Shown: positions 11,048 through 31,210 of the stretch, piece after piece
Layout: the number at the start of each line of letters is the position of its first letter
Position numbering within the stretch: the first letter of the stretch is position 1
Source: Geodermatophilus sabuli
Lineage (GTDB): Bacteria > Actinomycetota > Actinomycetes > Mycobacteriales > Geodermatophilaceae
Reading direction: 5' to 3'
DNA: 64,000 bases
Assembly: GCF_900215145.1 (NCBI RefSeq)
Contig: NZ_OBDO01000004.1
Location: 248,001-312,000 of the forward strand
Notes under the pieces: generated by a model
Database searches by the model: none
What the model was told of the DNA's origin: nothing
Seen by the model: only the letters and a program-made list of their open reading frames with translations
Translations under genes and position numbers: made by a program

Positions 11048-12636
11048 GGGCGCTCCTGGTCGGGTTCTGCCGGCGCGGGGGGCGGGCTTTGCTGCGCCGG
11101 GGTCTGCTGAGCAAGGCGGTAGAGGTCGGCCTCGGTGCCGGCGACAAGAAGGTCGTCGCCGGCCCAGCCGTCTACGTGCAGCGGGGCACCGTCGGTGTCG
11201 ACGACGGCGACCGGGCCGAGCACAGCGGCTGCGGCGTCGACGGCGGCCGCGGTGTCGGTGACCGCCTCGGGGGCATAGGTCCACAAGACGGCGAGCACGA
11301 GGAACCGCTCGACGTCGGCGGCCGTCACGCCGTCGGGCATGGTGGCGGTCCGCGCGGCGGTCAGCAGGGTGCTCAGGCGCGCCGGCAGGCCGGTGGCGTC
11401 GACGACCGCTGCGGCCGCCGCGATCACTGCGGGCGCGACGGCCGGTGGCTCGTCCTCACCGATCTCCTCGAGGTCCGGCGGAGGCGGGTCCGGTGGGCGT
11501 TCCCGACGGGGTGCCAGCAGGTCCTCCAGCAGGTCCCCCAGGCGGATCAGGCGTGGCGGCCGGGGGCCGGCGGTCAGCTCGGCGAAAGCCTCCGCGGGGT
11601 CTTGGGCGAGCTTGCGCGGGAGGGCCAGCAGCTCGGTGAACGTGGCGCTGACGTCGGGGTTGCCAATCCGGCCGAGCGGCCGGAAGGACTGCCGAGTCTG
11701 TTCTTCGAGGAAGACGTTACGGGCGATAACGATCCGGCCATGCAGCTCGGTGTGCCGGCGGCGGCACTCGTCGAGCAGGGCCGCGATTCGGGCCGCGGTC
11801 GCGGCGACGGGGGCGTCCTCGGCGGTGTCCAGGGCGGTACGGATGTGGTCGAGCAGCTTCTGCTCGGCGGTCAGCCGCTCGGCGATGTGGTCCCGGTTGC
11901 GGGTCAGCAGTTCCGGCACCTCCTCCGACCACCGGTCGGCGACCGACCTGATGTCGCGAACGGTGTCGGTGAGCAGAGCGCGGACTTCCTCGGCGTACCG
12001 GACCGACAGGCCGCGGTTGCGCTCGGCGGCGCGTTCGGCCTGCCCGAACGCGCCGCGTTCCAGCTGCCGGGAGAAGATCAGGTCGTTGGCGGCCTGCTCG
12101 TCCTCGACGTCGAACTCCAGGCCGCCGACCAGAGCGTTGATCGCGTCGGTGGTCGCCCGCAGGACGACGGTGTCGCGGCTGCGGTCTTCGTGTTCCGTGA
12201 CCAGCCGGAACTCCAGGGTCAGGGCCCGGTGGGTGATCTGGTCGGCCTCGAGCGCGTAGTCCGACACTCGGTATCGGAACGGCGCCTCCCGCTCTCGACG
12301 GTTCAGCAGGGTGTCCAGGACGTGTTCGGCGACCTCGTCGTGCTCGGTTGCGGGCCGATGCGGGTGCGAGGCCGCGGCCAGCCGTGTGAGGACGTCGACA
12401 GCCTCGTCATAGGTGAGCTCGTCGTCGAACCCCTGCCGCGCGATGATCGCGTCGACGGCAGCCAGCGCCAAAGTTGGCAGGTCGTACCGCTGTTCGGCCC
12501 ACGTCTGCCGGCCGGCGTCACCGGCCAACGGTCGGCCGCGCAGCAGGGCACGGACCCGATCACCGAAGGCGGTGTCGAAGACCGCACGGCTCTCGCTGGT
12601 CGTGCCGGGCGGAGCTGACCGACTCGGCTCGAACAT
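11044..12636 (-). CDS. jetA: JetA, MukF-like kleisin of a Wadjet system
   Basis: First gene of the jetABCD operon, 530 residues from the ATG at 12636. Two in-frame GTGs lie just upstream, but the AAGGGGGG ribosome-binding site is best spaced for the ATG. The N-terminal 120 residues look like winged-helix folds. A long helical middle follows (about 150-300, EEVRALLTDTVRDI and onward), then an acidic/proline-rich linker near 370-400 and a C-terminal winged-helix-like end. This is the layout of a MukF-type kleisin linking JetC heads. A damage-type promoter candidate lies about 60 bp upstream. The name rests on operon context plus architecture. Confidence 0.82.
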   Translation of the reverse strand: MFEPSRSAPPGTTSESRAVFDTAFGDRVRALLRGRPLAGDAGRQTWAEQRYDLPTLALAAVDAIIARQGFDDELTYDEAVDVLTRLAAASHPHRPATEHDEVAEHVLDTLLNRREREAPFRYRVSDYALEADQITHRALTLEFRLVTEHEDRSRDTVVLRATTDAINALVGGLEFDVEDEQAANDLIFSRQLERGAFGQAERAAERNRGLSVRYAEEVRALLTDTVRDIRSVADRWSEEVPELLTRNRDHIAERLTAEQKLLDHIRTALDTAEDAPVAATAARIAALLDECRRRHTELHGRIVIARNVFLEEQTRQSFRPLGRIGNPDVSATFTELLALPRKLAQDPAEAFAELTAGPRPPRLIRLGDLLEDLLAPRRERPPDPPPPDLEEIGEDEPPAVAPAVIAAAAAVVDATGLPARLSTLLTAARTATMPDGVTAADVERFLVLAVLWTYAPEAVTDTAAAVDAAAAVLGPVAVVDTDGAPLHVDGWAGDDLLVAGTEADLYRLAQQTPAQQSPPPAPAEPDQERP

Positions 12637-12694
12637 CACCACCCCCCTTCTCGCGGGTCACCGTTCACCCCGGCCGTCTGGGGGGAGTTGCCGG

Positions 12695-13810: not shown

Positions 13811-16800
13811 TTGGCTCAGAACCGACGCCGTCGTCCCGTCCGCGGCCGCGCTCCGGGGCACGTGCACGAGCACACTCCACTGCCGGCCAAGCCGGAGGAG
13901 TGGCCGTCGGGCCGCGAGATCGCCGCCGTGTGCGACATCGAGAACCTTACGGCCACAGCCATCGGCGCGGTCACCGCCGATGATCTCCTGCGGGCGCTCA
14001 AGACGATGCCTCCGCACCACCAGCATTTCGTGCTCAGCGCCCTCGGGCTGCGCAAGGCCGCGACCATCAACCGGGGCATGGCCGCGCAGCTGCTCGCCCG
14101 TCTGCGGGGCGGTGAACCGGGCGCGCGCACGGAGCTGTTGCGCGACGTCATCTCCCCGGTCATCTCCGCCCTCGACGGTGGGGCCTCACCCGAGCAGTGG
14201 TCGGCAATGCTCGGCAGCGACGACCGCGCGGCCCTGGACGCGTTCGCGGCGCGACCGGCGGTCTCCGACACCCTCGCCGTCGCCGTTCGGACGTTCAGCC
14301 CCGCGCTGCTCGCCGCAGGACTGACCGCGGCAATCAACGCCGACACCGCCGCCTCGGCGATCGCGCTGGCCCTCCTCGCCGCCGACTACGACGCGGCGCG
14401 GGAAGCGCACGCCGCGCTTCTCCCCGAGCATCCGCAGCTGCCCGCCATCCCCACCTCCACGCTGGCGGAGCTGCTGCCCGCGGAGCGTCTGGCCCGACTC
14501 GGCGTGCCCAAGAGCGACATCACCGCCGAGGAGCTCGCCGACCTCCTCGATGACCTGCTCGGCGACGAAGAGAAGGCCGGCGAGCCCGAAGGCGAACAGC
14601 CCACTGGCGATACCGGTCCCCTCTTCGCGGGTGCGATCTCCGAGGACGACGTCCAGCGCACCTTGGCGGCGGCGGAGCGGCGGGTGAACGCACCGACGAC
14701 GGCCGCCGGCGAGCATGCGGCGATCATGGAGCGCGCCGCGGACCTGCTCGCCGAGTGGTCCGACGTCACCGCGGTAGCCGGGCGCGTGCTGCATGCACTG
14801 CAGGCCGGTGACATTCCGTCGCCACCCGCTGTCCTGCAGGTGCTGAACTTCGCCGCCTTCGGTCAGGCCGTCGTCAACAAGCTGCAGCGCGCCGTCGGCA
14901 CCGGCGTCCTCCCGACCCGCGACGGCGTGGACCAGGCACTCACCGCCCTCGAGGAGCGTGAGGCCAACGCGTCCGAGGACGTGTGGCTCCGACGTCTCAC
15001 CATGCTGCAGGGCCCGCCCGCGCTCGACGATGCGCTCGACGACGTTCGAGTGGCCGCCGCCGACGCTCTCGCCGACAGCAGCATCGCCCGGGACGACCTA
15101 CGCGGCCTGTGGCGGCTGCTGGAGCTGACGGCCGCCGCCCGGCGCGGTGAGCACATGGACTTCGCCGAGCTGGCCGCTGCCCAGAGTGGCGCGAATGCCG
15201 CCTGGCCCAATGCTGGCGCGGTCATCACCGCGGCCGCGGTCGGCGCGGTACATCTCCCGGAGGAGACCGCCGCTCCCGCAGCGACCGGACTCGAGCCGGG
15301 CACGAAGGGAGGGCCTGCTCGCGACTCGTCCACCGCAACCACCGACGACGCGGCCGTTCAGACCCCGGGCCATGACTTCGCGGCCGACCACGAAGTCAAC
15401 ATCGCGCCCACGGCATCCAGCTGCGACGTGCCCGACAGCGACCACAGCGCCCTCGCCGCCGAGCCCAACGCCACCGGAGCCGACGACAGCGAAGGCGCGG
15501 ACATCGACGACGACGACGACGTACCCGGCCACACCGCCGAGGCGTCGGCCGAGCCTGCTGCAGCGTCGACCCTGCCGGCCGAGGAGGGCCTTGCCTCCTA
15601 CGCCTTGAACCCCCGCGACACGAAAGACCTCGACGAGCCCGACGACCTCGAAGACCTCGACGCTCTGCTGGACGCCGGGGCCGGCGCGGCTCTGGCCGCC
15701 GTCAGCGGACCCCGCCGCCGAGCCACTACGCCCCCAGTTCCGCCCACCCCGCTTCTGAGCGCTCCTGTGCCGGCGGCGGCCGCGGACAGCGACGGCGAGG
15801 TGGAGCCCGCGGAGTTGTTGTCCGTCGCGGCCGCGCTGCTACCCGCCGAGCGGTTCGGCCTGGCCGCCGACCTGCTGGAGTCCTCCGGCGCTCCGCAGGC
15901 CCCGGTGGCCGCCCGCCGCCTCACCGCCTACGCCACCCAGCTGACGTCCCCTACTGGGCACCTGGCGTCCGCGTTCGCCGAAACCGCGACGCAGGTGAGC
16001 CGCGACGCGCTCGGTGAGGACCGCGGCGGGCAGCTCCTCGCGCTGGCCGCTGCCGCCCGCGTGGCGCTGCTGGCCCCGTCCGCGGGCCCGGCCAGCGTGC
16101 TGATGGACCTGCTGCCCTGCGTCAGCGAGCGTCCCGCGCTCACCGAGGCGTTGACCGCGTTCGCCGACGCCAGCCGCACCGGCATCGTCGTCCTCGCCGA
16201 GACCGCCGACGTGGTCGGCACGCTGGCCGCAGCCGAGACCGCCGCTGCTGACGCTGCCGCGGCGGCCGCCGAGCTGGTCTCCGGCGCGGCCCGCCGCGTC
16301 ATCAAGTACATCCCCGCCAACGGCGTTTACCAGGCGTGGATGAACCCCGACGGCGACCTCGGCGCGCTACTCACGCAGGTCGCGGCCAACGACCCGTCCA
16401 CTGTCGCCGCCGTCCGTGACGCCGTCGTGAAGCTCCGCGGCAAGGCGAACAAGGCCATCGACACGACCTTCGCCGCGCAGCGGCGCAACAACTCCAACCG
16501 GATCGTTGCTGGCTCCCGCAGCTCGCTGGTGGCCCGCTGGGAGGAAGCGGTCGAGCTCGCTGCCCGCTGGACCGCCCTGGCGGAGCGGGTCACCGAGCGG
16601 CAGGCGGCGATCGCCGCCGGCGCCTGGCAGGCTGGCCCGCTCACCAAGCTGCGGCATCGCGTCGGAGCGGTGCGCGAGGACGCGCTCGTCGAGCTCGCCG
16701 CGGTGCAGAAGCGGGAGGAGCCGATCGCCGCTGCCGCCGTGGAGGCAGCACGGGAGCTGATCGCCGAGGCCTTCGCCATCTGCGACGGCGGCGTCCCCGA

Positions 16801-19800
16801 CGGCCCCGAGCCGCCGGCCGCGTTCGCCGCGCACGCCGAGTTGCTGGCCACCGAGCTGCCGCTGGCGCCCGACACCCTGCTGCCCGACGGTGGCCTGTCC
16901 GCCGAGCACCTTCCGGCGCTGCTCGCGCTGGCCGGCGCCGACCCGGTCGACACCGCCACCATGTACGCCATCCGCGCCGAGCACGGCGACCACGACCTGA
17001 CCGCCGCACTCATCGCCGGGCTACGCGCCGGCGACCCCACGACCGCGGCCGCCCTCGACCGACGGCGCAGCGCGGACATCACGGCGCAGGCCGGCACCGT
17101 CGTCGACGAGGTTGCCGCGCTGGCCACCCTCATCGACACCCGGCGGCTGGCCGGCACGCTCGACGACCAGCCCTGGGCGGCGCTCGCCGCCCGCGCCGAG
17201 GCGCTGGCCGACCCGACCCGACGCGACTTCGGCCGCATCCGGGCCGCGGTCGTCGAGGTGTCGGCCGAGCTGGACGCGCACGGGCAGCGGCGGATCGCCG
17301 CGACCCTCGACCGGATCGACGAGCGGGCCCGGGACAACGCCGCCGTGGCTGAGAACGGCGACTTTCTCGCCGACCTCGCCCGCGGCGGACAGGTTGCCAG
17401 CGCCGAGGAGTACCTCGAGACCATCCTGGCCGGTGGTCACCTTCCCGCCATGAGCGACCGCGTCGACCACCTGGCCCGCTTCTTCCCCGCCATCCCGCAG
17501 CTGGCCGTGGACCGACCGGCGCTGCTCGCCGAGCTGCACGCCGCCCTCAGCGGCCGCGACGTCGGCGACGGTGCCGAGACGCAGACCGTCGGCTTGAACC
17601 TGGCGGCACTATCGGAAGCCCGCCGCGACGCCGGCCGCAAGGCGTTGGGCTCGTGGATGGCGTTGACCGGCCGCAGCAAGGCCGCCCCGAAGGTGGACGT
17701 GCCCACCGCCTTGCAGGCGGTGCTGGCCCAGGCCGGGCTGGAGTTCGCCGAGGCGAAGGCCGAGCCGACCACCGCCCGGCACGGCGGGCGCCAGTGGATG
17801 CGGCTGTCCGGGGTCACCGGCCTTGGCCCGGCGCTCACCCCGGCGCTGGGGTCGGCGATGAGCCCCGACGGCGGCACGCTGCGCGTACTGCTGGTCAAGC
17901 AGGCCCCGACCCCGGCGACGCTCATCGAGTGGATGAGCTCTGAGACGCCCGACCACACCGTGCTGACGTTGTGGCTGGCCGGAGCGCTCAGCCCGTCCGA
18001 CCGGCGGGCGATCGCCGACGCCGCCCGCGGGCGGCCGAACCCGCCGCTGATGCTGCTTGACGCCGCCGCGCTGGCATACCTGGTGTGTCAAAACGAGCCG
18101 CGGCGGGCGACGTTCGAGGCCACCGCGCTGCCGTTCACGGCCGCCAGCCCCTACCGCGACACCCCCGGCGACACTCCGCGGGAGATGTTCTACGGGCGCA
18201 CCGACGAGCTCGCCGCCGTCGTCGACCTCAACGGGCCGTCGTTCGTCTCCGGCGGTCGGCAGCTGGGCAAGTCGGCGCTGCTGCGCGTCGCCAAGCGCCG
18301 CTTCGAGGAGACCGAGGGTCGGCACGCGGTCCTCATCAGCGTCTTCACCGTCGGCGGCGACGGGCGGCCCGAGCGGCTGTGGGGTGTGCTGTGGCCGCAC
18401 CTGGCCCGACTGGGCATCGTGGACAACGTCCCGCCGACCGGCCTCGAGGTCGACCTGGCCGAGGTCGTGTACGCAGCGGTGCTGCGATGGCTAGAGGCCG
18501 ACCCGAGGCGCGCGCTGCTCATCCTTCTCGATGAGGCCGACGCGTTCCTCGACGCCGACGCCGCCGGCGCCCTGTTCAAGCACGTCGACACCTGCCGGCG
18601 GCTCATGTGGGACTCCAACCGGCGCGCGAAGGTCGTGTTCGCCGGTCTGCACCGCACCGCCCGGTTCGAGTCACTGCCCAACCAGCCGCTGTCGCACCTC
18701 GGCCGGCCGATCAGCGTGGGACCGCTGCGCCCGCAGCACGCCCACGACCTGATCACCGAGCCGCTGGCCGCGCTCGGGTTCACATTCGACGACAACCGGG
18801 CCCTTCCGGCGCGGATCCTGGCGATGGCCAACAACATGCCGGCGCTGCTGCAGCTGTTCGGTCAGCAGTTGGTCGCGCAGCTGACCGCCCAGCCGGTCCC
18901 CGCCGACGGGCCACCGCAGGTCATCACCGATGACGACGTCGACGACGTGTTCGCCAACGCCGAGCTGAAGGCCGCCTTCCGCGAGAAGTACGTGCTGACG
19001 CTCAACCTCGATCATCGGTACCTCGTTATCGCCTACTGCGTGGCCGCGGCCGCGCACGAGCACGGCGTCGACCGCAGCCTCAACCTCGTCGAGTTGTCCG
19101 ACATGGCCCGGCAGCACTGGCCGGAGGGGTTCAGCGCCGTCGGCGCCGACGACTTCCGCGGCCTGGTCACCGAGTGCGTCGACCTCGGCGTGCTCGCCGG
19201 CGGCGGCGGCCGGTACCGGCTGCGGACGCCGACGGTGCTGCGGCTGCTGGGCACCGAGGAGGAGGTGCTGGAGACCCTCTACACCGCCTCTGAGCGGATG
19301 GTCGTGCCCTCGGTGTCCGACGCCGGGTCGTTCCGACGCCGCGTCGGGGAGGGCAGTCGATCCCCGCTGACCGAGGGGCAGCTCGGGCGGCTGTTCGACG
19401 CCCGCCGGCAGGTGCTCACCGTGACTGGCTCGCCCGCCCTCGGCGGCGACGCGGTGCTGTCAGCGGTGGAGGCCGCGTGGGACGAGGAGGCCCACCGCGT
19501 CGGCGCGGTCACCCGGGTGCGCACCGCCAGCCCCGACGGCATCCGCGGCGCGGTTACCCGGGTCGGCGCCAGCAGCGCGCTACTGCTCGTCGACGGGCAG
19601 AACCTGACGATCCAGAAGCTCTGCGAGCTGCTGTCGGCGGCCGAGGTCGCCGTCGCCGACGCCGCGCGGGACGTGACGGTCGCGATCGTCACCGCCCCGA
19701 CCAACGCCGCGGCGTGGGCGTCCTTGGCCGCCCGCATCGACCTCGACCGGCTCGACGAGCCCGGGCTGCGGATGTGGTGCGACGAGGACGGACTGCCGTT

Positions 19801-20278
19801 CCGCGACGAGGACTCCCGGGCGCTGCTCATGGCCGCCACCGGCGGATGGCCGCGGGTCGTCGCCCAGGCCGCCCAGTTGGCCGCCGCGGCCGGGCCGGCG
19901 ACCGGCAGCGCCAAGGTTCTCGCCGACCTGGACGCGTGGCTGAACCGCGTGGGCGGCCACCGGCTGGCCGTCGGCGCCGGCCTCGGGCCCAACACCCCGG
20001 CGCTGACCGAGGCCTTCCGCTCTGCGGTCGACCTGTGCGGCCCGGACGGCGAGACTCCCGAGGTGCTCGCCGAGCTTCTCGAGCTCGACGACCGCGTCGA
20101 CCTGGCCGCCCTCGCCCAGGCCGAGCGCTTCGACTCGCTGACCGACGTCATCGCCGCGCTCACCGCGCTGGGCTGCCTGACCGTCACCGCCACCGGCCGG
20201 CTGCGGCCGGAGCCAGTGCTCGCCGCGCACCTGCCCGGCCCCGACGGCTCGCACCGCACCACCGGGAGCGCCGCGTGA
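13811..20278 (+). CDS. Giant P-loop ATPase heading a DISARM-like operon (2,155 aa)
   Basis: The TTG start at 13811 has AGGAGG 7 nt upstream and an in-frame TAG directly before it. Residues 1-480 are helical and Ala/Leu-rich, 490-660 are acidic low complexity, and 660-1450 again form a long helical scaffold. The ATPase domain follows the lead-in EMFYGRTDELAAVV: Walker A G1481-GRQLGK-S1488, Walker B LLILLDEADAF (D1574, E1575), then a sensor-like region and winged-helix-like segments to about 1850. A second degraded nucleotide-binding-like fold may follow at 1870-2050. It resembles STAND/ORC-type AAA ATPases and recalls the very large ATPases of BREX, but I cannot place it in a named family. Its stop overlaps the next GTG. 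It probably acts as the motor or signalling scaffold of the system. Confidence 0.75.
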   Translation: MAQNRRRRPVRGRAPGHVHEHTPLPAKPEEWPSGREIAAVCDIENLTATAIGAVTADDLLRALKTMPPHHQHFVLSALGLRKAATINRGMAAQLLARLRGGEPGARTELLRDVISPVISALDGGASPEQWSAMLGSDDRAALDAFAARPAVSDTLAVAVRTFSPALLAAGLTAAINADTAASAIALALLAADYDAAREAHAALLPEHPQLPAIPTSTLAELLPAERLARLGVPKSDITAEELADLLDDLLGDEEKAGEPEGEQPTGDTGPLFAGAISEDDVQRTLAAAERRVNAPTTAAGEHAAIMERAADLLAEWSDVTAVAGRVLHALQAGDIPSPPAVLQVLNFAAFGQAVVNKLQRAVGTGVLPTRDGVDQALTALEEREANASEDVWLRRLTMLQGPPALDDALDDVRVAAADALADSSIARDDLRGLWRLLELTAAARRGEHMDFAELAAAQSGANAAWPNAGAVITAAAVGAVHLPEETAAPAATGLEPGTKGGPARDSSTATTDDAAVQTPGHDFAADHEVNIAPTASSCDVPDSDHSALAAEPNATGADDSEGADIDDDDDVPGHTAEASAEPAAASTLPAEEGLASYALNPRDTKDLDEPDDLEDLDALLDAGAGAALAAVSGPRRRATTPPVPPTPLLSAPVPAAAADSDGEVEPAELLSVAAALLPAERFGLAADLLESSGAPQAPVAARRLTAYATQLTSPTGHLASAFAETATQVSRDALGEDRGGQLLALAAAARVALLAPSAGPASVLMDLLPCVSERPALTEALTAFADASRTGIVVLAETADVVGTLAAAETAAADAAAAAAELVSGAARRVIKYIPANGVYQAWMNPDGDLGALLTQVAANDPSTVAAVRDAVVKLRGKANKAIDTTFAAQRRNNSNRIVAGSRSSLVARWEEAVELAARWTALAERVTERQAAIAAGAWQAGPLTKLRHRVGAVREDALVELAAVQKREEPIAAAAVEAARELIAEAFAICDGGVPDGPEPPAAFAAHAELLATELPLAPDTLLPDGGLSAEHLPALLALAGADPVDTATMYAIRAEHGDHDLTAALIAGLRAGDPTTAAALDRRRSADITAQAGTVVDEVAALATLIDTRRLAGTLDDQPWAALAARAEALADPTRRDFGRIRAAVVEVSAELDAHGQRRIAATLDRIDERARDNAAVAENGDFLADLARGGQVASAEEYLETILAGGHLPAMSDRVDHLARFFPAIPQLAVDRPALLAELHAALSGRDVGDGAETQTVGLNLAALSEARRDAGRKALGSWMALTGRSKAAPKVDVPTALQAVLAQAGLEFAEAKAEPTTARHGGRQWMRLSGVTGLGPALTPALGSAMSPDGGTLRVLLVKQAPTPATLIEWMSSETPDHTVLTLWLAGALSPSDRRAIADAARGRPNPPLMLLDAAALAYLVCQNEPRRATFEATALPFTAASPYRDTPGDTPREMFYGRTDELAAVVDLNGPSFVSGGRQLGKSALLRVAKRRFEETEGRHAVLISVFTVGGDGRPERLWGVLWPHLARLGIVDNVPPTGLEVDLAEVVYAAVLRWLEADPRRALLILLDEADAFLDADAAGALFKHVDTCRRLMWDSNRRAKVVFAGLHRTARFESLPNQPLSHLGRPISVGPLRPQHAHDLITEPLAALGFTFDDNRALPARILAMANNMPALLQLFGQQLVAQLTAQPVPADGPPQVITDDDVDDVFANAELKAAFREKYVLTLNLDHRYLVIAYCVAAAAHEHGVDRSLNLVELSDMARQHWPEGFSAVGADDFRGLVTECVDLGVLAGGGGRYRLRTPTVLRLLGTEEEVLETLYTASERMVVPSVSDAGSFRRRVGEGSRSPLTEGQLGRLFDARRQVLTVTGSPALGGDAVLSAVEAAWDEEAHRVGAVTRVRTASPDGIRGAVTRVGASSALLLVDGQNLTIQKLCELLSAAEVAVADAARDVTVAIVTAPTNAAAWASLAARIDLDRLDEPGLRMWCDEDGLPFRDEDSRALLMAATGGWPRVVAQAAQLAAAAGPATGSAKVLADLDAWLNRVGGHRLAVGAGLGPNTPALTEAFRSAVDLCGPDGETPEVLAELLELDDRVDLAALAQAERFDSLTDVIAALTALGCLTVTATGRLRPEPVLAAHLPGPDGSHRTTGSAA

Positions 20279-22482: not shown

Positions 22483-24905
22483 CCGGTCCGGCAGGGGAGG
22501 CCGCGGCCGGGTTGTCGCAGGTAGTCCGCCGCGGCGACCTGCGGCTGCGGGTGCCCGGCGCCAGCGTGCGCCGGCTGTCCCCGACACCGTTCGACGGCGA
22601 GCTGCTCTCCGCCGTCGACGCGGCCGCCGCCGGCGGGTTGCCGCTCGCGCTAGTGGTGCCGCTGCCGGCGGCCGACATCCCGATCATGCTCGGCGCGGCC
22701 GCGGTCACCGCGGAGATCACCCGCAGCTGGAGCGTGGCGGTGTCGGCGACCGTGGTGTCGTCCCGGCTGTCGCAGCGGACCCGCTACGACCAACTGCACG
22801 TCCGCGACGCCGCCCTCTCCTCGATTCTTCCCCGGGCGCGCCTGGACGCCGACGGAGCCGTCGTCCCGATCGGCGACCCGTTCCCCGCGGCCGGTGGTGG
22901 GCGGCTGGTGCTCACCGGCGACCTCGAGCGGGTGCCGCCGTTCGGCGGGGCGCTGGTCGTCGACGGGACCGGCGGCGCTGGCGGGGATCTCGCCGCGCTG
23001 CTGCGGACCCGCCGCGCGGTCATCTACATCACTGACAACCCGTTCGACGCCGCCCTAGACGCCGTCCGGGCCGCCGGCGGTGCGGTGTGGGCGTTCGACC
23101 CGGCGACGCTGGCCCGGCTCGCCGGAGATTCGCCCGCCCCGCCGTCCGGTGCTTTGAGGGAGGAAGACCCCGCGGTCGCCGCGCCGTCCAGATTGCTCCG
23201 GGCCGCCGGCGCCGCCACCCGGCAGGTGTGGGCGCCGGCAACCGACACCGACCTCGACGGGGCGCTGCATGCGGCGTGGGTGGCGCTCAGCGCGTTGCCC
23301 GCCGGCCGTGGACCCGCCGCCGCGGTAGCGCTGCGGTGGGCGTGGGGCACGTTCGCGACGTTCGCGCTGCTGCCAGTCGACGCCGCCGGCTACGACCGGC
23401 ACGTGCCCCGCGGGCCGTACTCCACCCGGCTGGCCGACGCACCCGACCATGCTCGCGCGGTGGCTGCGGCCGCGGCGCAGACCGGTGGCGCCGCACCCTG
23501 GACGTCGGTGGCCGGCGCCTTCGCCGGCCTGCTACGGACCTCCGGCAGCGCCCCCAAGCTGCCGCTGGTGTCGCAGTGGCTGGCCGGCGTCGTGGACGGC
23601 GGGCAACACGGTCTGCTGGTCACCCGGAACCGGGCGGCCGTGGAGGCGCTCACCGCCGCGCTGCAGGAGTCGACCGGGACGCCGTTCGGCTGGCAGGCAC
23701 GCGCGCGCATCGTCGGGATCCGCGACCTGCTGTTAGGCCGGGTGCCGGGGCTGCCGGTCGACTCGATGCTGCTGACCGGGCCGGTCCCCCGCGCGTACGC
23801 CAGCCTCGTCGCTGCGCCGGCCGCCGCCGAGGTGACGGTGCTGGGCGCCGGTGACTGGGAGGCCGAGCGCGCCGCTCGGCAGGCAACGCAGACGCTTCGG
23901 GCGCTGGCTGAGCTGCGCCGCGAGACAGTGGCGGTCACCGCCCCGCTGCTGAGGCTGCAAGCCGACGGTCCGGGTGCTGCGGAGCCGGTGACCATCCGCC
24001 GGGACGGCGCGGTCCTCCCCCCGCCACCCGATGGCGGGTCCTCGCCGTGGGAGCCGTTCTCCGCCGCCGTGCAGGCGGTGCTCGCTGCCGAGCGCCGTGG
24101 CCGGCCCGACGACGACGGCGACGCTCCTCCCCCGGCTCGCGACGGCGAGGACGGGGAGGCAGCGCAGGTGCCGGCGCTGCTGGTGACGTTCACCGACGGG
24201 CAGGGGCTGCTGCTGGCGCCCAACGACCCGGTGTACCGCCGCGCCGGTGACGAGGTCCGCAAGGTCGCGGCCAAGGCGCTGGTGCACGGCGACTGGGTGG
24301 CGCTGGTCGACGCCACCACCCGGCGGGACCTGTTCGACACCGTCATCGCCGCGCTAGCCGGGGTCGACATGCAGTACCACCTGCTGACGGTGATGCGGGA
24401 CGTGTGGCGCCAGCGGGTCGACGTCGCCCGCGGCTGCGGACTCACGCAGCGGGAGATCCTCGCCCGGATGCAGGCCGGCCCCGACCCGACCGGCGTGACG
24501 GCGGAGACGACCATCGGTTCGTGGCTACGGCATGACGCAGTGCCGCTGCGCGCCGAGGACGTCTCCCGGTTCGCTGCTGCCGTCGGCGACGCCGAGCTCC
24601 GCCGCAACGGAGCCGCGGTCGGCGCCGCGCTACTACACCTGCGGAGCATCCACCAGCAGGTCGGGCGGCGCCTCACCGCGCAGATCACCGGCGCGCACGT
24701 GCACGCCGCGGAGACCCTCGTCGACGCGCAGCTGCGGATCCACGCCGGCGACCTGCTCGAGGCCGTGACCGTGCACGAGGTCGACGACGTCGGCTCGAAG
24801 CTGATCGCCGTTCCGGCAGCCCTGCTCGGAGTGCTGCTCGACGCCGACACCCGCACCGCGGTGCATGCCTCCGCACCACCGGTGGCACCCCGCGGCGACC
24901 GCTGA
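22479..24905 (+). CDS. drmE: DrmE-like protein (candidate DISARM component)
   Basis: An 808-residue protein whose GTG start overlaps the upstream stop by four bases. The N-terminal two thirds alternate strands and helices like Rossmann-type folds (LALVVPLP, LLVTRNRAAVEAL). A beta-rich insert near 560-610 reads LLVTFTDGQGLLLAPNDPVY and then VHGDWVALVD. The C-terminal 180 residues contain WRQRVDVARGCGLTQREIL, then TTIGSWLRHDAVPLRAEDV. This resembles the C-terminal region I associate with DrmE of class 2 DISARM, whose function is unknown. The name is an inference from this pattern, the length near 800 residues and the adjacent drmABC. About 200 bp separate it from drmA. Confidence 0.5.
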   Translation: MTGPAGEAAAGLSQVVRRGDLRLRVPGASVRRLSPTPFDGELLSAVDAAAAGGLPLALVVPLPAADIPIMLGAAAVTAEITRSWSVAVSATVVSSRLSQRTRYDQLHVRDAALSSILPRARLDADGAVVPIGDPFPAAGGGRLVLTGDLERVPPFGGALVVDGTGGAGGDLAALLRTRRAVIYITDNPFDAALDAVRAAGGAVWAFDPATLARLAGDSPAPPSGALREEDPAVAAPSRLLRAAGAATRQVWAPATDTDLDGALHAAWVALSALPAGRGPAAAVALRWAWGTFATFALLPVDAAGYDRHVPRGPYSTRLADAPDHARAVAAAAAQTGGAAPWTSVAGAFAGLLRTSGSAPKLPLVSQWLAGVVDGGQHGLLVTRNRAAVEALTAALQESTGTPFGWQARARIVGIRDLLLGRVPGLPVDSMLLTGPVPRAYASLVAAPAAAEVTVLGAGDWEAERAARQATQTLRALAELRRETVAVTAPLLRLQADGPGAAEPVTIRRDGAVLPPPPDGGSSPWEPFSAAVQAVLAAERRGRPDDDGDAPPPARDGEDGEAAQVPALLVTFTDGQGLLLAPNDPVYRRAGDEVRKVAAKALVHGDWVALVDATTRRDLFDTVIAALAGVDMQYHLLTVMRDVWRQRVDVARGCGLTQREILARMQAGPDPTGVTAETTIGSWLRHDAVPLRAEDVSRFAAAVGDAELRRNGAAVGAALLHLRSIHQQVGRRLTAQITGAHVHAAETLVDAQLRIHAGDLLEAVTVHEVDDVGSKLIAVPAALLGVLLDADTRTAVHASAPPVAPRGDR

Positions 24906-25104
24906 CCAGGCCGGTCATGGCGCCGCGAACACCCGGGTGGACGCATCCTCACGCAGATCCTGTTGACAGCTGCAGCCGGTCCGGTCAAGCTGCCCGACAC
25001 AACTACACACCGTAACCACCCACAGGGCGGGCGAGGACCTCGAGGTCTGGACCCGTCCCCTTCGCCTACGGGCGACCACACACACCGCTGAAGGGAAGCC
25101 GCCC

Positions 25105-28100
25105 ATGTCGGCTCTACTGAGCGTGCCCGCAGGCACGCCCGCGCCCACGCAGGCGCAGATCCGCGACGCACTGCTGCGCCACCTGCAGCAGCAGATCCTT
25201 GCCCAGGCCGCCGGCGAGCACATCCCCGCCGCGACCGTGCTGACCGACACCCCGCAGGAGCGGCACTGGCTCGGCCAGCTGGCCAGCGAGCCGCAGCTGA
25301 CCGTCGACGCCGCTCGCGGGTTCAGCCCTCGCCTGGTACCCGCCGCACAGGGGTTCTCCTTCCCCGTGCACGGCACTGGCCCCGTCCACCTCGACGTGCA
25401 GTTGTCGTTCGCCGTCTACGTGGCGCTGCACCCGACCGCCGCCGAGCAGCGCGAGTTCGTCCACGCCGGTGACGACGACAGTCGCTCCACCAGCGGGTCG
25501 GCGCAGGGCCGGCACCTGGCCCGGGTGTGGACGAAGGTGCTCGTCGGCCCGCTGACCGTGCCGATCACCGTTGCCGCTGACGACACCAGCCGGCGGTTCG
25601 CCGCCGCCGAGATCACCACGGCGGTCACTGACGCTGTCGCCGCCGCGGCCCGCGCCGCCGGCGGCCGAGATCTGTACCGGGCCAAGCGGACCGGCACCCC
25701 GCGCGCGCTGCTGCCTGTAGACGCCGACTTCGTCGACGACACCTCCTGGGCCTCCTACGCCGGCGCGAACTTGCTGCCGGCCGCCGACGTCACCGCACCG
25801 CAGTTCGCCGCCGCGATCGAAGTCGACGCCACGGTGACCCAGCACGGCCGCGAGCTGCTGGTCACCGTCATCAACACCTCCCCGGCCGACGACGCCCAGT
25901 TCGCCGACCTCACCGGCAGCACCCCGCTGGACCGCGACCACCTCGACAGCCGCCTGTACGAGGTGCAGCTGGCCGCCACCACCGACGCGCCGGTCGACGT
26001 CTACACCCTTGAGCAGGTCGCCCGTTCCCACCGCTACGACCGCACCGTCGAGGCGTTCGGGCAGGCCTGCCCCGTCGAGGTCGACCCTCTGCCGGGCGGG
26101 CAGACCCGCCTCCGCACCGTGTACGGGGCCGTCAACACCACCGGACGATCGCACCCGACCGACGCCGTCGACACGTCGTTCACCGCGTTCATCTCCGACC
26201 CGGTCGCCGCCGCCGGGGCGCTCGTCGAGGCGCACGAGCAGTGGGTGACCGAGCACTGGTCGACCGCCGCCCTCGACCGGCGCCACGCAGCCGGCGCCTG
26301 GACGCCCGAGCAGCGGGCCGCCGCCGACACCGAAGCCGACGCCGCGCACGCCGAGGTCGCGTGGCTGCGCGCCGGCCTGGACGCGCTGCGCGGCGACCCG
26401 ATGCTGCGCCGCGCGTTCGTGCTGATGAACACCGCCATGGAGCGGGTGGCCGCGGCGAAGAACTTCAAGGCGTGGTTTCCGTTCCAGATCGCGTGGATCC
26501 TCGGCTGCCTACCCGCCGTCGCCGACCCGACGGCCGACCTGGCCGTGCAGATCCTCACCGTGCCGCCGGGCGGTGGGAAGTCCGAGGCCTACAACGGCGT
26601 CGCGCTCGTCCACCTCTTCTACGCCCGGATGCGCGGCGACCTGCGTGGGGTGACGGTGTGGGCGCGGTTCCCGCTGCGGCTCTTGTCGGCACAGCAAACC
26701 GAGCGGTTCGCCGCAGCGGTGTTCGCCGCCGAGCTCGTCCGCTTGGACCAGGCCGACCTGCGCGCCGGCGACCCGTTCGGCATCGGCTTCTTCGTCGGCA
26801 GCGGCACCACCCCGAACAAGTACTGGCCGGCCGACGTCGCCTGGGCGCGCGGGGTGGACCCCTTCGACCCGGCCGAGGCCGAGCGCTGCCGGGTGCTTGA
26901 GCACTGCCCCGTCTGCGACCCGGCCGGAGCCGGCCCCCGCCTGGTCGTCCGGTTCGACGGGCCCAGTTGGACGATGCAGCACCTGTGCGCCAACCGCAGC
27001 TGCTCGCTGGGTGGTCAGCTGCCGCTGTGGGTCGTCGACGACGACATCTACCGGCAGGCGCCGTCGGTGTTGGTGGGGACCGTCGACAAGCTCGCCCAGG
27101 TCGCGCACAGCGACAAGTTCAAGATCCTTTTCGGCCGTGCGCTGGGCCGCTGCGCGGAGCACGGCTGGACCGTCGACCCGGCCCGCTGCGGGGTGTACCG
27201 CTGCAACGAGCCGCGGCTGCCGGTCGGCGAGGGCTTCGGGCACCTGCGGTGCGAGATCACCGACGAGCTGCACCTGCTCGACGAGAGCCTCGGCGCGCTC
27301 GACGGCATGTACGAGACCCTGGTTCAGCAGATCGGCGCCGACCTCGGCAACACCCCGCTGCACATCCTGGCCGCCACCGCCACGATCGAGGGCTACCAGA
27401 CGCAGGTGCAGCACCTCTACCGCCGCACCGCCCGCCGGTTCCCCGAGCCTGGCCCCTCGGCCGCGGCGAACTTCTTCTCCGCCGTCGACCCCGACGAGCC
27501 GCTGCGGCGGCACCTCGGCGTCCGCCCACGAGGCACCACCATGGTCACCGCCTCAGCCGACGTCACCCGAGTGCACCGCGACTGGCTCACCACCGCGCTC
27601 GCCGACCCCGCCGCGGCCGCGACCGCCGCCGGTCTCGACGCGATCGGACAGGCCCGCGACGGAGTGCCGGTGGTCGACGTCGTCACCCGCGCCGTCCGCC
27701 ACGACTACGAGGTGCTGCTGGCCTACTGCCTGCGCAACGAGGACATGGCCGCCTACGCCAGCGACGACCGGGTCGCCGACGTCGCGACCACCACCGAGCA
27801 GCGGGCGGTCATCTCCGGCGACGCCGACGCCGTCGACATCCGCGCCGCCGTCGACCGGTTGAACAAGCCGCCGGCCGACGCCGAGCGGCGCACTCGCCTC
27901 ATCGTCGCCACCAAGGCCATCGGGCACGGGTTCGACTCCCCACGGCTGGGCGTCATGGTCCTCATGGGCACCCCCACCCAGGCGGCGGAGGTCATCCAGG
28001 CCACCGCCCGCGTCGGGCGCACTCACCCCGGCCTGGTCGTGCACGTGTTCAACCCCTCCCGCGACCGGGATTCCTCGGTGTTCCGCTGGTACGCCAAGTG

Positions 28101-28530
28101 GGTCGACTACCTCGACCGGTTGCTCACCAAGGTGCCAGTCAACCGCGAGTCGCTGCCGGTGCTGCGCCGCGCGCTGCCCGGTGCGTTGATGGCCCGGCTG
28201 CTGCAGATCCACGACCCCGCGTGGATGACCTCCGGCCGCGGCCGCTACTCCCTGGGCGACGCCGGCCAGGTTCGCGACGCCCTCGCCGCCGGATTCCTCA
28301 CCGACGCCCAGCTGATCACCGAGCTGTCGGCCGGCCTCGGCCTGGAGGCGGCCAACCCCTACCACCAGATGCACCACGCCGAGGTCGCCGAGTTCGTCTC
28401 CAACACCCTCGTCCGGCTGCCGGTCGCCACCGGCGGCGGCCGCACCCGCACCGCCGACCAGCTGCGCCCCGGCGTGCCGCGGTCGCTGCGCGACATCGAA
28501 GAGCCCATCACCATCACCGGGAACCTGTGA
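25105..28530 (+). CDS. drmA: DrmA, DISARM helicase
   Basis: A 1,141-residue SF2-type helicase starting at an ATG about 200 bp after the previous gene. Motifs in order: Walker A PPGGGK492-S, a DEAH-like box TDELHLLDE, motif III LAATATI, and QATARVGRTHPG as motif VI (Q-x3-R-x-G-R). Between the first two lies a cysteine cluster (CRVLEHCPVC and later CANRSC) that probably binds zinc. The first 440 residues have no recognised domain. In DISARM, DrmA forms a complex with DrmB that loads on DNA, and incoming phage DNA is blocked. It is followed at 8 nt by drmB. The 199-bp gap upstream contains a TTGACA at 24963 with no convincing -10, so drmABC might also have its own weak promoter. Confidence 0.88.
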   Translation: MSALLSVPAGTPAPTQAQIRDALLRHLQQQILAQAAGEHIPAATVLTDTPQERHWLGQLASEPQLTVDAARGFSPRLVPAAQGFSFPVHGTGPVHLDVQLSFAVYVALHPTAAEQREFVHAGDDDSRSTSGSAQGRHLARVWTKVLVGPLTVPITVAADDTSRRFAAAEITTAVTDAVAAAARAAGGRDLYRAKRTGTPRALLPVDADFVDDTSWASYAGANLLPAADVTAPQFAAAIEVDATVTQHGRELLVTVINTSPADDAQFADLTGSTPLDRDHLDSRLYEVQLAATTDAPVDVYTLEQVARSHRYDRTVEAFGQACPVEVDPLPGGQTRLRTVYGAVNTTGRSHPTDAVDTSFTAFISDPVAAAGALVEAHEQWVTEHWSTAALDRRHAAGAWTPEQRAAADTEADAAHAEVAWLRAGLDALRGDPMLRRAFVLMNTAMERVAAAKNFKAWFPFQIAWILGCLPAVADPTADLAVQILTVPPGGGKSEAYNGVALVHLFYARMRGDLRGVTVWARFPLRLLSAQQTERFAAAVFAAELVRLDQADLRAGDPFGIGFFVGSGTTPNKYWPADVAWARGVDPFDPAEAERCRVLEHCPVCDPAGAGPRLVVRFDGPSWTMQHLCANRSCSLGGQLPLWVVDDDIYRQAPSVLVGTVDKLAQVAHSDKFKILFGRALGRCAEHGWTVDPARCGVYRCNEPRLPVGEGFGHLRCEITDELHLLDESLGALDGMYETLVQQIGADLGNTPLHILAATATIEGYQTQVQHLYRRTARRFPEPGPSAAANFFSAVDPDEPLRRHLGVRPRGTTMVTASADVTRVHRDWLTTALADPAAAATAAGLDAIGQARDGVPVVDVVTRAVRHDYEVLLAYCLRNEDMAAYASDDRVADVATTTEQRAVISGDADAVDIRAAVDRLNKPPADAERRTRLIVATKAIGHGFDSPRLGVMVLMGTPTQAAEVIQATARVGRTHPGLVVHVFNPSRDRDSSVFRWYAKWVDYLDRLLTKVPVNRESLPVLRRALPGALMARLLQIHDPAWMTSGRGRYSLGDAGQVRDALAAGFLTDAQLITELSAGLGLEAANPYHQMHHAEVAEFVSNTLVRLPVATGGGRTRTADQLRPGVPRSLRDIEEPITITGNL

Positions 28531-28538
28531 GGACCGCC

Positions 28539-30428
28539 ATGACCACCGAGGAGATCAGCCGCTCCGGGATGCAGGCGCTGTGGCGGAACATGCCCCGGCA
28601 GCCGTTCCAGTGGGGCCCGCACAAGGTGTCGGTGCTCGGGCGTACCCCGCGCAACCCCACCCCGCTCGACGTGCCCGAGGAGTACGTCGCCGCGCAGCTA
28701 CGCCGCCTGGTGCGCCCCTTCTCCGCCCAGCGGGCCACCCCGACCAGCCCTGGCCCCGAACTGGAGGTCATCGACCGGCAGCAGTACCAGCTGGTCAAGG
28801 TCGAAGACCTCGTCGCCGACCGGTTCCCCAACGCGTTCCTGTGCCGCAAATGCAACGCGTTCGCCACCGTCCGCCCCGAGCAGCGCCCGCCGACCTGCCC
28901 GGCTGGGCACGGCCCGATGCCGCAGTTCCAGTTCGCCGAGGTGCACAACTGCGGCCTGCTGCGCGACCTCGCCCCGCCGCGGTGCCCCCGTGGCTGCCGC
29001 GCGCCGATGCAGCTGCACAACACCCACCAGCTCAAGGTCGGGCAGTGGTTCTGGGCGTGCTCGCAGTGCCGGACCCGGCCCGACGGCGGCGTCCTGCGGT
29101 TCTGCAGCGAGTGCCGCGCCGGGCGGGTGTCGGTCACCCGCATCCCGCAAAACTCCGTGCACTACGCCCAGCACCTGACGGTGCTCAACCCGCCGGACCG
29201 GGCCTCCTACGGGGCCCTGGCCGGCGCCGACATCCACGCCGCCGCCGTCGGGCAGCTCATCGGCGCCGTCGGCCCGGGGCTGACCACGCTCGCTCAGGCG
29301 GCTGGCACCGCTGGAGAGGACCCCGAGGCGGCGGCGCGGGCGATGGCCGCCTCCCTCGGCATCGAGGAGGGCACGCCGCTGTTCGACCAGCTGCTCGAGG
29401 CGGCCCGCGCAAAGGCTGCCTCCAGCGGCGGGTGGCGCGCCGACGTCGACGCCCTCGGGCTGGACGCCGACACCCTGGAGGCCATCGGCGACGAGGCGCT
29501 GGCCCTGGCCCGGGCGAGTGAAGCCGAGCCGCTGACGCTGGAGCACCTCACTGCCAACCCGCCCTCGCCGAGCCTGACGCCGGTCTATCACCGCTACGCC
29601 CAGCTGCTCGACCAGTACTCGCTGACCGAGGTGCGGCTGCTGCGGGAGCTGCCGGTCGCGCACATCGTCGCCGGGTACAGCCGCATGTCGGCCACCCACC
29701 AGCAGGTGACCCGCCGCGGCAACGTGCCCACGCGGTTCAACTTCTTCCCCAACGAGCGCTCCGACCGCTTCCCCATGTACGGGCGCCGCGCGACCACTGA
29801 GGGCCTGCTGGTCCGCATCGACCCGCTGGCGGTCATCTCGTGGCTCGTGGACTCGCTGCCCGGTGACGTGCCCGACCCCGGCATTACCGACTCCGCCGCT
29901 GCCTACCGGTGGCTTCTGCAGGCGTGCCCGCCGGTCACCGACGTGTTCAACCCGCCCGACCACCCGGTCACTGGCGCGGTGCTCGGGCTCGTGCACTCCA
30001 TGGCGCACCGGTTCATGAAGTCGCTTGCGACCCGGTGCGGGCTGCACATCGACTCCCTGGCCGAGTACCTGTTCCCGTCGGCGGCGGCGTTCCTCATCTA
30101 CGCCAACACCCGCAGCGAGTTCACCCTCGGCGGCATCGAACACGTCTTCCGCTACGACCTCGCCGACGCCCTCGAGGAGCTCGACAGCGACCCGCGGTGC
30201 GTGTTCGACCCGCCGTGCCGCCGGTCGTTCGGTGGCGCGTGCGCGGCCTGTCTGCACACCAGCGAGGTCGCCTGCGAGCGGTTCAACACCGAGCTCGACC
30301 GCAACAAGCTGTTCGGGACGCTGTCACCGCCGGCCGGCGCCCCGGTACCCGCAGGCACCGGTACGGGTGCCGGTGGGTCATCCACGTCGTCGGCGGAGCC
30401 GGTGTGGCGAGCCTTCTGGAAACCGTGA
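28539..30428 (+). CDS. drmB: DrmB, DUF1998 zinc protein of DISARM
   Basis: The ATG follows the drmA stop by 8 nt, with GAGGA overlapping that stop. The protein has 629 residues. Several cysteine pairs occur: FLCRKCNAF (about 105), PTCPAGH, CPRGC, CSQCRT and CSECRAG, consistent with zinc ribbons. The C-terminal DUF1998 part is clear: LHIDSLAEYLFP, FTLGGIEHVF, CVFDPPCRRSFGGACAACLH and ERFNTELDR. DrmB is the partner of DrmA, and the pair is the conserved core of all DISARM classes. The open frame extends far upstream only because it shadows drmA in another frame; the codon pattern and ribosome-binding site fix the start here. Confidence 0.9.
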   Translation: MTTEEISRSGMQALWRNMPRQPFQWGPHKVSVLGRTPRNPTPLDVPEEYVAAQLRRLVRPFSAQRATPTSPGPELEVIDRQQYQLVKVEDLVADRFPNAFLCRKCNAFATVRPEQRPPTCPAGHGPMPQFQFAEVHNCGLLRDLAPPRCPRGCRAPMQLHNTHQLKVGQWFWACSQCRTRPDGGVLRFCSECRAGRVSVTRIPQNSVHYAQHLTVLNPPDRASYGALAGADIHAAAVGQLIGAVGPGLTTLAQAAGTAGEDPEAAARAMAASLGIEEGTPLFDQLLEAARAKAASSGGWRADVDALGLDADTLEAIGDEALALARASEAEPLTLEHLTANPPSPSLTPVYHRYAQLLDQYSLTEVRLLRELPVAHIVAGYSRMSATHQQVTRRGNVPTRFNFFPNERSDRFPMYGRRATTEGLLVRIDPLAVISWLVDSLPGDVPDPGITDSAAAYRWLLQACPPVTDVFNPPDHPVTGAVLGLVHSMAHRFMKSLATRCGLHIDSLAEYLFPSAAAFLIYANTRSEFTLGGIEHVFRYDLADALEELDSDPRCVFDPPCRRSFGGACAACLHTSEVACERFNTELDRNKLFGTLSPPAGAPVPAGTGTGAGGSSTSSAEPVWRAFWKP

Positions 30429-31210
30429 CCCCGCTGGCGGACCTGGTGACCCGCACCTGCGACTCGGCTGGGGCCGTGGCCGCGGTGCGGGCCGCCACCG
30501 CCGATGGGGCCGCAGCCATCGCCGGCGTTCTCGTCGAAGCAGGCGCCGACCGCCGACTACTGCCCGGCGCACTGGAGTACGCCGGAGTGACCGCCACCGC
30601 TACCCCGCTGGAGCTGGCGGCGATCGCCGGGGCGCTGGAGGTTCTCGTCGCCTCTCAGCGCACAGGGCAGCCGTCGCTGGTGCTCACGGTGCCCGAGTTC
30701 CTCACCGGCGCCTACGCCCGCTTCCTCGCCGACCACCCGGCTGTCCACGCACGGCGCACCTCCGCAGTCCTCGCCGAGGTCGCCGCCGGCGCCGAGGGCC
30801 GGCTGCTGGTGGCCGCGCCGTACCTCACCGGTGTCGCCCTCGAGCGGCTGGTGCCGCACGCCGGCCGAGTCCTCACCGACGGCGGCACGGTCTGCGTCAT
30901 CACACGGGCGCTCACCGGCAGGAGCCCCGAGCCGTCGCCGGCGAACATCGCTGCGGTCGGCGCCCTGCGGCGGGTGACCCAGAGCCGCCCCGGGCGGCTG
31001 CTCGTCCGCTCATGGGAAGGGCCTGGCCTCGGAGTGCACCTCAAGGCGGTGATCGCCGACCGTGACGACGCCTACCTGGGATCCGCGAACATGACCGATG
31101 GCGGACACCGCGGACACGCCGAAGCCGGGGTGCGCCTGCCGGCCGCGATCGCCGGCCCGCTCGCCGACTGGTTGGAGATGCTCGCCGGCGCCCTGACCGA
31201 GGTCCCCTAG
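30404..31210 (+). CDS. drmC: DrmC, phospholipase D-family protein of DISARM
   Basis: This PLD-superfamily protein has 268 residues with one HKD motif, H-L-K-A-V-I-A-D-R-D-D-A-Y-L-G-S-A-N, near the C-terminus; the N-terminal half is a degenerate partner. In DISARM, DrmC is the third core gene, though it appears dispensable for protection in published work. The GTG at 30404 lies inside the drmB 3' end; a second GTG at 30425 would overlap the drmB stop as GTGA. I prefer the first because the helix LLETVTPLADL looks native. A hairpin terminator lies 120 bp downstream, closing the operon. Confidence 0.85.
   Translation: MASLLETVTPLADLVTRTCDSAGAVAAVRAATADGAAAIAGVLVEAGADRRLLPGALEYAGVTATATPLELAAIAGALEVLVASQRTGQPSLVLTVPEFLTGAYARFLADHPAVHARRTSAVLAEVAAGAEGRLLVAAPYLTGVALERLVPHAGRVLTDGGTVCVITRALTGRSPEPSPANIAAVGALRRVTQSRPGRLLVRSWEGPGLGVHLKAVIADRDDAYLGSANMTDGGHRGHAEAGVRLPAAIAGPLADWLEMLAGALTEVP

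What the first reader, a model, noticed from the sequence alone, without database searches (positions are those of the whole stretch)
13811..31210. Methyltransferase-free DISARM variant headed by a giant ATPase and a beta-CASP nuclease
The cluster ends in a clear DISARM core (DrmA helicase, DrmB DUF1998, DrmC PLD). Its first three genes are a 2,155-residue ATPase, a coiled-coil/beta-CASP nuclease with all zinc ligands, and a DrmE-like protein. The first three are joined by four-base overlaps. Described DISARM classes carry an adenine or cytosine methyltransferase to mark self DNA; none occurs in the cluster or window. Self/non-self distinction must use another principle, perhaps ATP-driven sensing of DNA topology or translocation that licenses the nuclease.
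Basis: partly seen in the sequence, partly recalled or inferred. Interest (0 to 1): 0.93.

Follow-up and report, generated by a model that had tools for sequence, protein, structure and literature searches.

The report
DISARM variant with swappable nuclease module
An actinobacterium carries a virus-defence gene cluster that lacks the usual DNA-marking enzyme and is joined instead to a portable pair of genes, a giant ATP-using protein and an RNA-cutting type of enzyme, which related bacteria have combined with it in more than one way.

Summary
Confirmed: a giant P-loop ATPase, a CPSF73-type beta-CASP nuclease with its catalytic residues, a DrmE-like protein, DrmA, DrmB and DrmC lie in order at 13811-31210. 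The host genome has no match to five DNA-methyltransferase families, but carries a dnd-like phosphorothioation locus.

ATPase and beta-CASP overlap by 4 bp in 47 of 49 non-duplicate rows; 42 of 51 pair loci show no DISARM in the DNA held. DrmE goes with DrmA. Nine loci join both modules. ATPase and beta-CASP trees share one split, DrmE and DrmA trees another; forcing either onto the other is rejected, a conflict that in the nine-row trees rests on one locus, L115, but that outgroup-rooted trees also show.

One of the nine clusters (L115) has a methyltransferase gene inside; some DISARM loci without the pair seem to lack one too.

Likely working, inferred: DNA-end sensing by DrmAB, ATPase-gated RNA cleavage by beta-CASP. 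Structure prediction never ran. New variant of a known kind.

The parts
13811..20278 (+). Giant P-loop ATPase, 2155 aa, gene 1 of the portable pair
   Evidence: relatives; no above-cut-off family match
20275..22482 (+). CPSF73-type beta-CASP nuclease with N-terminal coiled-coil-like region, 735 aa, gene 2 of the pair; overlaps gene 1 by 4 bp
22479..24905 (+). DrmE-like protein, 808 aa; overlaps gene 2 by 4 bp; evolves with DrmA
24906..25104 (.). 199-bp gap between the DrmE-like gene and drmA; no consensus promoter or terminator by simple scan
25105..28530 (+). DrmA helicase, 1141 aa
28539..30428 (+). DrmB (DUF1998-type), 629 aa; an alternative start at 28527 would overlap drmA by 4 bp
30404..31210 (+). 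DrmC PLD-type nuclease, 268 aa, HKD motif intact

Best explanation
The locus is a class-2-like DISARM (DrmE-DrmA-DrmB-DrmC) without its methyltransferase, translationally coupled to a portable two-gene module of a giant P-loop ATPase and a CPSF73-type beta-CASP nuclease. Proposed working: DrmAB stays autoinhibited until it meets DNA with free 5' single-stranded ends, as reported for Serratia DISARM, so entering or replicating foreign DNA is recognised by its structure rather than by missing methylation. DrmE and DrmAB pass this to the ATPase, an ATP-dependent switch that holds the beta-CASP nuclease inactive and releases it on infection. The beta-CASP enzyme then cuts RNA (or single strands), while DrmC/DrmAB act on DNA. 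Shown here by sequence: gene set, motifs, absence of five methyltransferase families, recurrence, re-pairing of the two modules. Inferred: sensing mode, the ATPase as gate, RNA as substrate, antiviral function.
For: Nine loci in diverse Actinomycetota join both modules. ATPase and beta-CASP trees share one split, DrmE and DrmA trees a different one, each 100/100; forcing each onto the other's split is rejected (p-AU 8.9e-59, 8.7e-107, 1.9e-5, 2.3e-55). Outgroup-rooted trees conflict likewise: the L134/L181 ATPases group with the Nocardia ones, their DrmA with the window's. A start codon overlapping beta-CASP by 4 bp is available for drmE in the window, L110, L112 and L126; ATPase/beta-CASP overlap by 4 bp in 47 of 49 non-duplicate rows. 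Beta-CASP kinship to aCPSF1/FttA, TTHA0252, INTS11, CPSF73 and Cas14, motif-C His kept (that it marks RNA-acting members is recalled). Host genome without PF00145, PF01555, PF07669, PF02384, PF02086. DrmAB sensing of 5'-overhang DNA: PMC9142583 (abstract, passages, section 10). Defence setting: Wadjet III genes alongside; 3 of 4 pair-only loci sampled lie near BREX/Pgl or Hma/DpdE-type genes. Precedent for enzyme pairs acquired repeatedly by unrelated systems: PMC12799240 (passages).
Against: 42 of 51 pair loci show no DISARM in the DNA held, and G265, whose DrmE-A-B-C lies inside the joined clade, has no ATPase match, so neither module strictly needs the other. In the nine-row trees the conflict disappears when L115, a long-branched row, is left out. 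The host's dnd-like locus could mark self DNA. L115 has a methyltransferase gene inside the cluster. The Serratia DrmA aligns to the window's only over part of its length. No experiment, and no structure model could be made.
Confidence: 0.4

Rival explanations
1. Two independent defence systems sit side by side: the ATPase/beta-CASP pair is a stand-alone system, and DrmE-A-B-C is a methyltransferase-free DISARM that works on its own. Shared transcription only.
For: 42 of 51 pair loci show no DISARM in the DNA held; G265 has DrmE-A-B-C but no ATPase match; pair-only loci lie near BREX/Pgl or Hma/DpdE genes; the two modules have separate histories.
Against: 4-bp overlap of the pair with drmE in four loci; linkage kept although partners differ; each of the nine pair loci with DrmA also has the DrmE-like gene.
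Confidence: 0.27
2. Self DNA is marked in trans by another modification, in this host phosphorothioation by the dnd locus, and the DISARM part spares DNA so marked.
For: DndB match E 4.9e-135 on another contig; neighbours fit dndA, dndC, dndD, dndE by size, order and motifs, DndE also by PDB 7x4e at E 2e-4.
Against: DndB found in only 1 of 9 genomes with the joined cluster, so it is no general partner; the dndC candidate had no PDB match. Reported DrmAB inhibition was by 5-methylcytosine (PMC9142583).
Confidence: 0.1
3. One reading: the ATPase senses DNA topology or translocates on DNA and licenses the beta-CASP enzyme as a DNA nuclease.
For: P-loop ATPase coupled to a nuclease gene; other branches of the ATPase family sit with DNA helicase genes.
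Against: Nearest solved relatives of the beta-CASP protein are RNA-processing enzymes; no helicase or translocase family match in gene 1.
Confidence: 0.1
4. The DISARM part is decaying after loss of its methyltransferase and is no longer used.
For: Methyltransferase missing; profile scores below the NCBIfam cut-offs.
Against: Open frames, intact motifs of DrmA and DrmC, and the same gene set kept in L110 and L112 at 54-82% identity.
Confidence: 0.05

Closest known systems
DISARM class/type II (DrmA, B, C, E, MII; rule from PMC9252829 passage)
   Same: DrmE-like, DrmA, DrmB, DrmC in the same operon-like run
   Different: No DrmMII, and no match to five methyltransferase families in the genome; giant ATPase and beta-CASP nuclease coupled upstream
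DISARM class/type I (DrmA, B, C, D, MI)
   Same: DrmA, DrmB, DrmC
   Different: No DrmD or DrmMI found in the cluster; DrmE-like present. Actinobacterial class-I-like loci D375, D351, D301 fall in another DrmA branch
ARMADA, BRIGADE, TALON, Druantia, Dpd (YprA-family systems; PMC12458937: abstract, passages, section 8, first of eight parts of the text)
   Same: YprA-like helicase with DUF1998 part
   Different: DrmA and DrmB are separate genes as in DISARM; a term search of that preprint's main text gave no 'beta-CASP' or 'DrmE', and its two 'MBL' hits are protein accessions
Nuclease-protease pairs of Hachiman, AVAST, Lamassu, DRT (PMC12799240, passages)
   Same: Metallo-beta-lactamase-superfamily nuclease with a partner gene, joined to different defence systems
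   Different: Partner here is a giant ATPase, not a protease; nuclease is CPSF73-type; the joined system is DISARM, which that paper's text does not mention
Cas14 of type VII CRISPR and archaeal aCPSF1/FttA
   Same: Beta-CASP catalytic core
   Different: Below the curated cut-offs of both models; no CRISPR gene seen; ATPase partner

Membership tests
DISARM (any class) | drmA, drmB and drmC core adjacent | tested here: met
   PADLOC hits; HKD and helicase motifs; NCBIfam hits below curated cut-offs
DISARM type II | DrmE present | tested here: met
   Pfam DrmE_C above cut-off over the C-terminal part; no PADLOC DrmE hit; NCBIfam DrmE_fam below cut-off
DISARM type II | DrmMII cytosine methyltransferase present | tested here: not met
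   No PF00145 match in the own genome; control rings in 10 of 14 genomes
DISARM type I | DrmD and DrmMI present, DrmE absent | tested here: not met
   No such gene among the six; no PF07669 or PF02384 match in the own genome; DrmE-like present
DISARM | Antiphage activity; DNA-end and methylation sensing | not testable with these tools
   Needs experiment
CPSF73/aCPSF1-type beta-CASP nucleases | MBL motifs 1-4 and beta-CASP motifs A, B, C (His) | tested here: met
   10 positions identical in 10 of 10 sequences (motif names recalled); PDB profile matches E 5.2e-69 to 7e-49 before RNase J at 1.6e-14
STAND/AAA sensor NTPases | P-loop NTPase core with a family profile match | tested here: inconclusive
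   Walker A and B intact but no Pfam, NCBIfam, PADLOC or PDB-sequence match to the core; likeness is my reading of the motifs
Nuclease-protease pair (Hachiman/AVAST type) | Trypsin-like or caspase protease partner | tested here: not met
   No protease family hit in genes 1 or 3

The most novel reading that the evidence does not exclude
The ATPase/beta-CASP pair is a portable, ATP-gated RNA-destroying effector that plugs into DISARM in place of methylation-based restriction: a DNA-end sensor (DrmAB with DrmE) triggers RNA cleavage, giving a DISARM that needs no self mark.
Probability: 0.27. Interest if true: 0.82.

Novelty: new variant of a known kind. Interest (0 to 1): 0.6.

Why it matters
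DISARM is usually described as restriction-modification-like, with methylation marking self, while structural work on DrmAB points to sensing of DNA ends. A natural DISARM family without the methyltransferase, in a host with none of five methyltransferase families, makes the question whether methylation is needed for self-tolerance directly testable. It would also show defence systems exchanging a coupled ATPase-nuclease module, and could link DNA sensing to RNA destruction. The pair on its own is a common actinobacterial gene pair for which the ten library searches made here listed no description.

Tried and rejected
Chance or misframe: rejected, since the frames are open and conserved in relatives. 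Methyltransferase in trans: five Pfam families searched in the own genome with controls, no match. Searches covered 8 genomes (not that of L115); searches covered 9. Matches on the cluster's own contig in relatives: G422 (Eco57I and N6_Mtase about 27-55 kb from drmB, and one Eco57I fragment below the cut-off just beyond the drmE gene), G424 (N6_Mtase about 15 kb from drmB), G420 (marginal N6_Mtase about 770 kb away) and G421's single chromosome (more than 3 Mb away). DrmA methylation-sensor residue V1296 of Serratia: the PDB alignments stop short of it and a search with the C-terminal piece found nothing useful. The conserved C-terminal SLRD(V/I)-like motif, with Ile in the window, L110 and L112, is only a guess at the same site. 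Promoter or terminator in the gap: none by simple scan. Phage records: no ATPase match; plasmids: ATPase relatives in 24 records, no beta-CASP match at E 1e-40. Rubrobacter plasmid DISARM: no methyltransferase annotated, but a neighbouring 645-aa protein has a DPPY motif and the 839-aa neighbour no DrmE-like match, so it is not counted. G265: a neighbouring 354-aa gene has a sub-cut-off Methyltransf_11 match, and a PF00145 match lies on another contig. Leaving out L115 removes the tree conflict in the nine-row trees. The ATPase pieces used in the trees are unequal in length. Structure prediction of the DrmE-like protein and the ATPase core never ran. Not examined: what the 500-aa and 735-aa partners are, and the ATPase relatives beyond the 80 kept of at least 489.

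Full report
OBSERVATION. The six genes are real and sit at the stated places. DrmA, DrmB and DrmC match PADLOC models, best E 7.8e-90, 7.4e-43 and 1.9e-9; matches to NCBIfam DISARM models are below the curated cut-offs. Gene 3 matches Pfam DrmE_C above the cut-off, in its C-terminal part. Gene 2 has Lactamase_B, Beta-Casp and RMMBL. Gene 1 has intact Walker A and B motifs and no family match above a cut-off. Overlaps of 4 bp join genes 1/2 and 2/3; 199 bp precede drmA. The DrmE-like gene was found in 1 of 26 genomes of the genus, the own one.

GENE 2. A profile of ten relatives finds aCPSF1, FttA, TTHA0252, INTS11, CPSF73 and Cas14 chains at E 5.2e-69 to 7e-49, RNase J next at 1.6e-14 (best 60 of 78 shown). 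Ten ligand/catalytic positions are identical in 10 of 10 sequences, including the His of motif C that is typical of RNA-acting members (recalled). I therefore expect an RNA nuclease.

GENE 1. In 394 genomes of the class, 18 match its C-terminal 725 aa, 15 of them strongly (E below 1e-70). A scan of genome contigs gave at least 489 relatives, of which the best 80 were kept: 78 Actinomycetota and 2 cyanobacteria (groups). Among 91 non-duplicate loci, 42 have beta-CASP without DISARM, 9 have both, 28 have a conserved upstream protein of about 735 aa (with a large helicase-type gene further upstream in at least 10 of the rows printed), 4 a 400-505 aa partner, and 8 something else. Fifty of the 51 beta-CASP loci form one branch (support 100); G333, a long branch, falls outside. 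ATPase and beta-CASP overlap by exactly 4 bp in 51 of 53 rows, 47 of 49 after removal of four duplicates.

LINK TO DISARM. With HMMs built here, 9 of 51 pair loci also hold DrmA and DrmE-like genes: the window, Goekera deserti (L110), 'Nocardia' NRRL S-836 (L112), Kutzneria CA-103260 (L134), Micromonospora chaiyaphumensis (L181), Nocardioides speluncae (L115), Nocardia higoensis (L123), N. mikamii (L125) and N. exalbida (L126). DrmB is present in 8 and for L115. The DNA held downstream of some of the other 42 is short (about 2 kb in G232), so 42 is an upper limit for 'without'. L110 has the same six-gene order including DrmC. L112 has an endonuclease/exonuclease/phosphatase-family gene after drmB where DrmC would be. 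In L134 and L181 the DrmE gene is upstream and divergent.

TWO MODULES. In nine-row trees ATPase and beta-CASP both split {window, L110, L112, L115} from {L134, L181, L123, L125, L126}; DrmE and DrmA both split {window, L110, L112, L134, L181} from {L115, L123, L125, L126}; each 100/100. Forcing each onto the other's split is rejected, p-AU 8.9e-59 (ATPase), 8.7e-107 (beta-CASP), 1.9e-5 (DrmE), 2.3e-55 (DrmA). Without L115, a long-branched row, the unrooted trees no longer conflict, so there the fourth combination rests on this one locus. Trees with outgroups show a conflict apart from it: the L134/L181 ATPases lie with those of the three Nocardia, their DrmA with the window's. L134/L181 and L123/L125/L126 are about equally far from the window in ATPase (35-37%), but at 50-52% against 29-33% in DrmA. 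So the modules were re-paired at least once but are found linked again. Gene 3 belongs with DISARM, not with the head pair. Against strict dependence, G265 carries DrmE-A-B-C inside the joined clade but no ATPase match.

METHYLTRANSFERASES. The own genome (100% complete by the tool) has no match to PF00145, PF01555, PF07669, PF02384 or PF02086 (controls ring in 10, 11, 11, 13 and 4 of 14). Of nine joined clusters, L115 has an N6_N4_Mtase gene on the other strand between beta-CASP and DrmE. For the other eight no above-cut-off match lies closer to drmB than about 15 kb. Of ten DISARM loci without the pair that I looked at, six have a methyltransferase within 5 kb of drmA (G120, G189, G138 with 31 and 34; D375, D351, D301), one at about 12.5 kb (G403), and in G265, D266 and D143 none was found among the neighbours scanned, which were only some of them. 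Lack of a methyltransferase is thus commoner with the pair in this small sample, and not confined to it.

ANOTHER SELF MARK. The own genome has DndB at E 4.9e-135. Its neighbours fit dndA (divergent), dndC (SGGKDS), dndD (ABC-type Walker A) and dndE by size, order and motif (DndE also by PDB 7x4e, E 2e-4; no PDB match for the dndC candidate; dnd motifs recalled). DNA phosphorothioation in this host is likely. None of the other eight genomes matched DndB, so this cannot be the general answer.

MECHANISM. For Serratia DISARM, DrmAB is reported as autoinhibited by a trigger loop and activated by 5'-overhang DNA, with lower ATPase activity on methylated DNA (PMC9142583; abstract, passages and section 10). 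I propose that the present variant keeps DNA-end sensing and adds an ATP-gated beta-CASP effector. That is inference. The main rival is two systems side by side. A precedent for exchange of enzyme pairs between defence systems is PMC12799240 (passages).

LITERATURE. Ten library searches listed no paper that, by title, abstract start or the passages I opened, describes a beta-CASP gene or giant ATPase with DISARM; 'DISARM' with 'beta-CASP' and 'defense' gave 0 papers. The library lacks most subscription papers and the original DISARM paper; class rules are taken from PMC9252829 (passage). Passages only were seen of PMC11090510, PMC10270631 and PMC13142454.

VERDICT. A real, recurrent, new variant of DISARM built of two exchangeable modules. 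The mechanism is plausible and untested.

Noticed in passing
window 4630-12642 (- strand): Wadjet type III genes (JetD3, JetC3, JetA3 by PADLOC; the 365-aa gene 10187-11284 at the JetB place has no hit), divergent from the cluster. A Wadjet-like set by gene sizes, with a DUF3323/DUF2399 gene, also follows the cluster in Kutzneria (L134/L192).
   Followed up: partly
window 34963-38016 (+): Phosphorylase-superfamily domain with an AAA_16 ATPase part and PADLOC hits PDC-M60C and Effector: probably a further defence gene.
   Followed up: no
L151:22-8075 and 27 further loci: Another branch of the giant ATPase sits downstream of a protein of about 735 aa without Pfam hit (in L151), which follows a 1,949-aa protein with RNase_T, DinG-like and DpdF-like helicase parts: perhaps an undescribed three-gene defence system.
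   Followed up: partly
L032:8107-9600, and G043, G178, L142: Giant ATPase followed by a 400-505 aa protein (4-bp overlap in G148 and G178) that did not cluster with beta-CASP by BLAST; the one scanned had no Pfam or PADLOC hit.
   Followed up: no
G000 contig C8:59794-66137 (L204): dnd-like phosphorothioation locus in a host genome with no match to five methyltransferase families.
   Followed up: partly
L200 (Methylocystis parvus plasmid): ATPase relative next to UvrD and PD-(D/E)XK genes and before STY4851-family and DEAD-helicase genes: the ATPase family joins several helicase-nuclease gene runs.
   Followed up: no
L191:17471-18400 (-): An endonuclease/exonuclease/phosphatase-family gene follows drmB in the L112 genome where DrmC would stand.
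   Followed up: no
L028, L048, L029, L026: Pair-only loci near BREX/Pgl genes (G205, G196) and Hma/DpdE-type helicases (G186); the one protein scanned from G240 had no hit.
   Followed up: partly
L173 and L176: Giant ATPases without beta-CASP also lie near DrmA/DrmB genes of another branch, in L173 with a type-I-like N6 methyltransferase and a kinase gene beside them.
   Followed up: no
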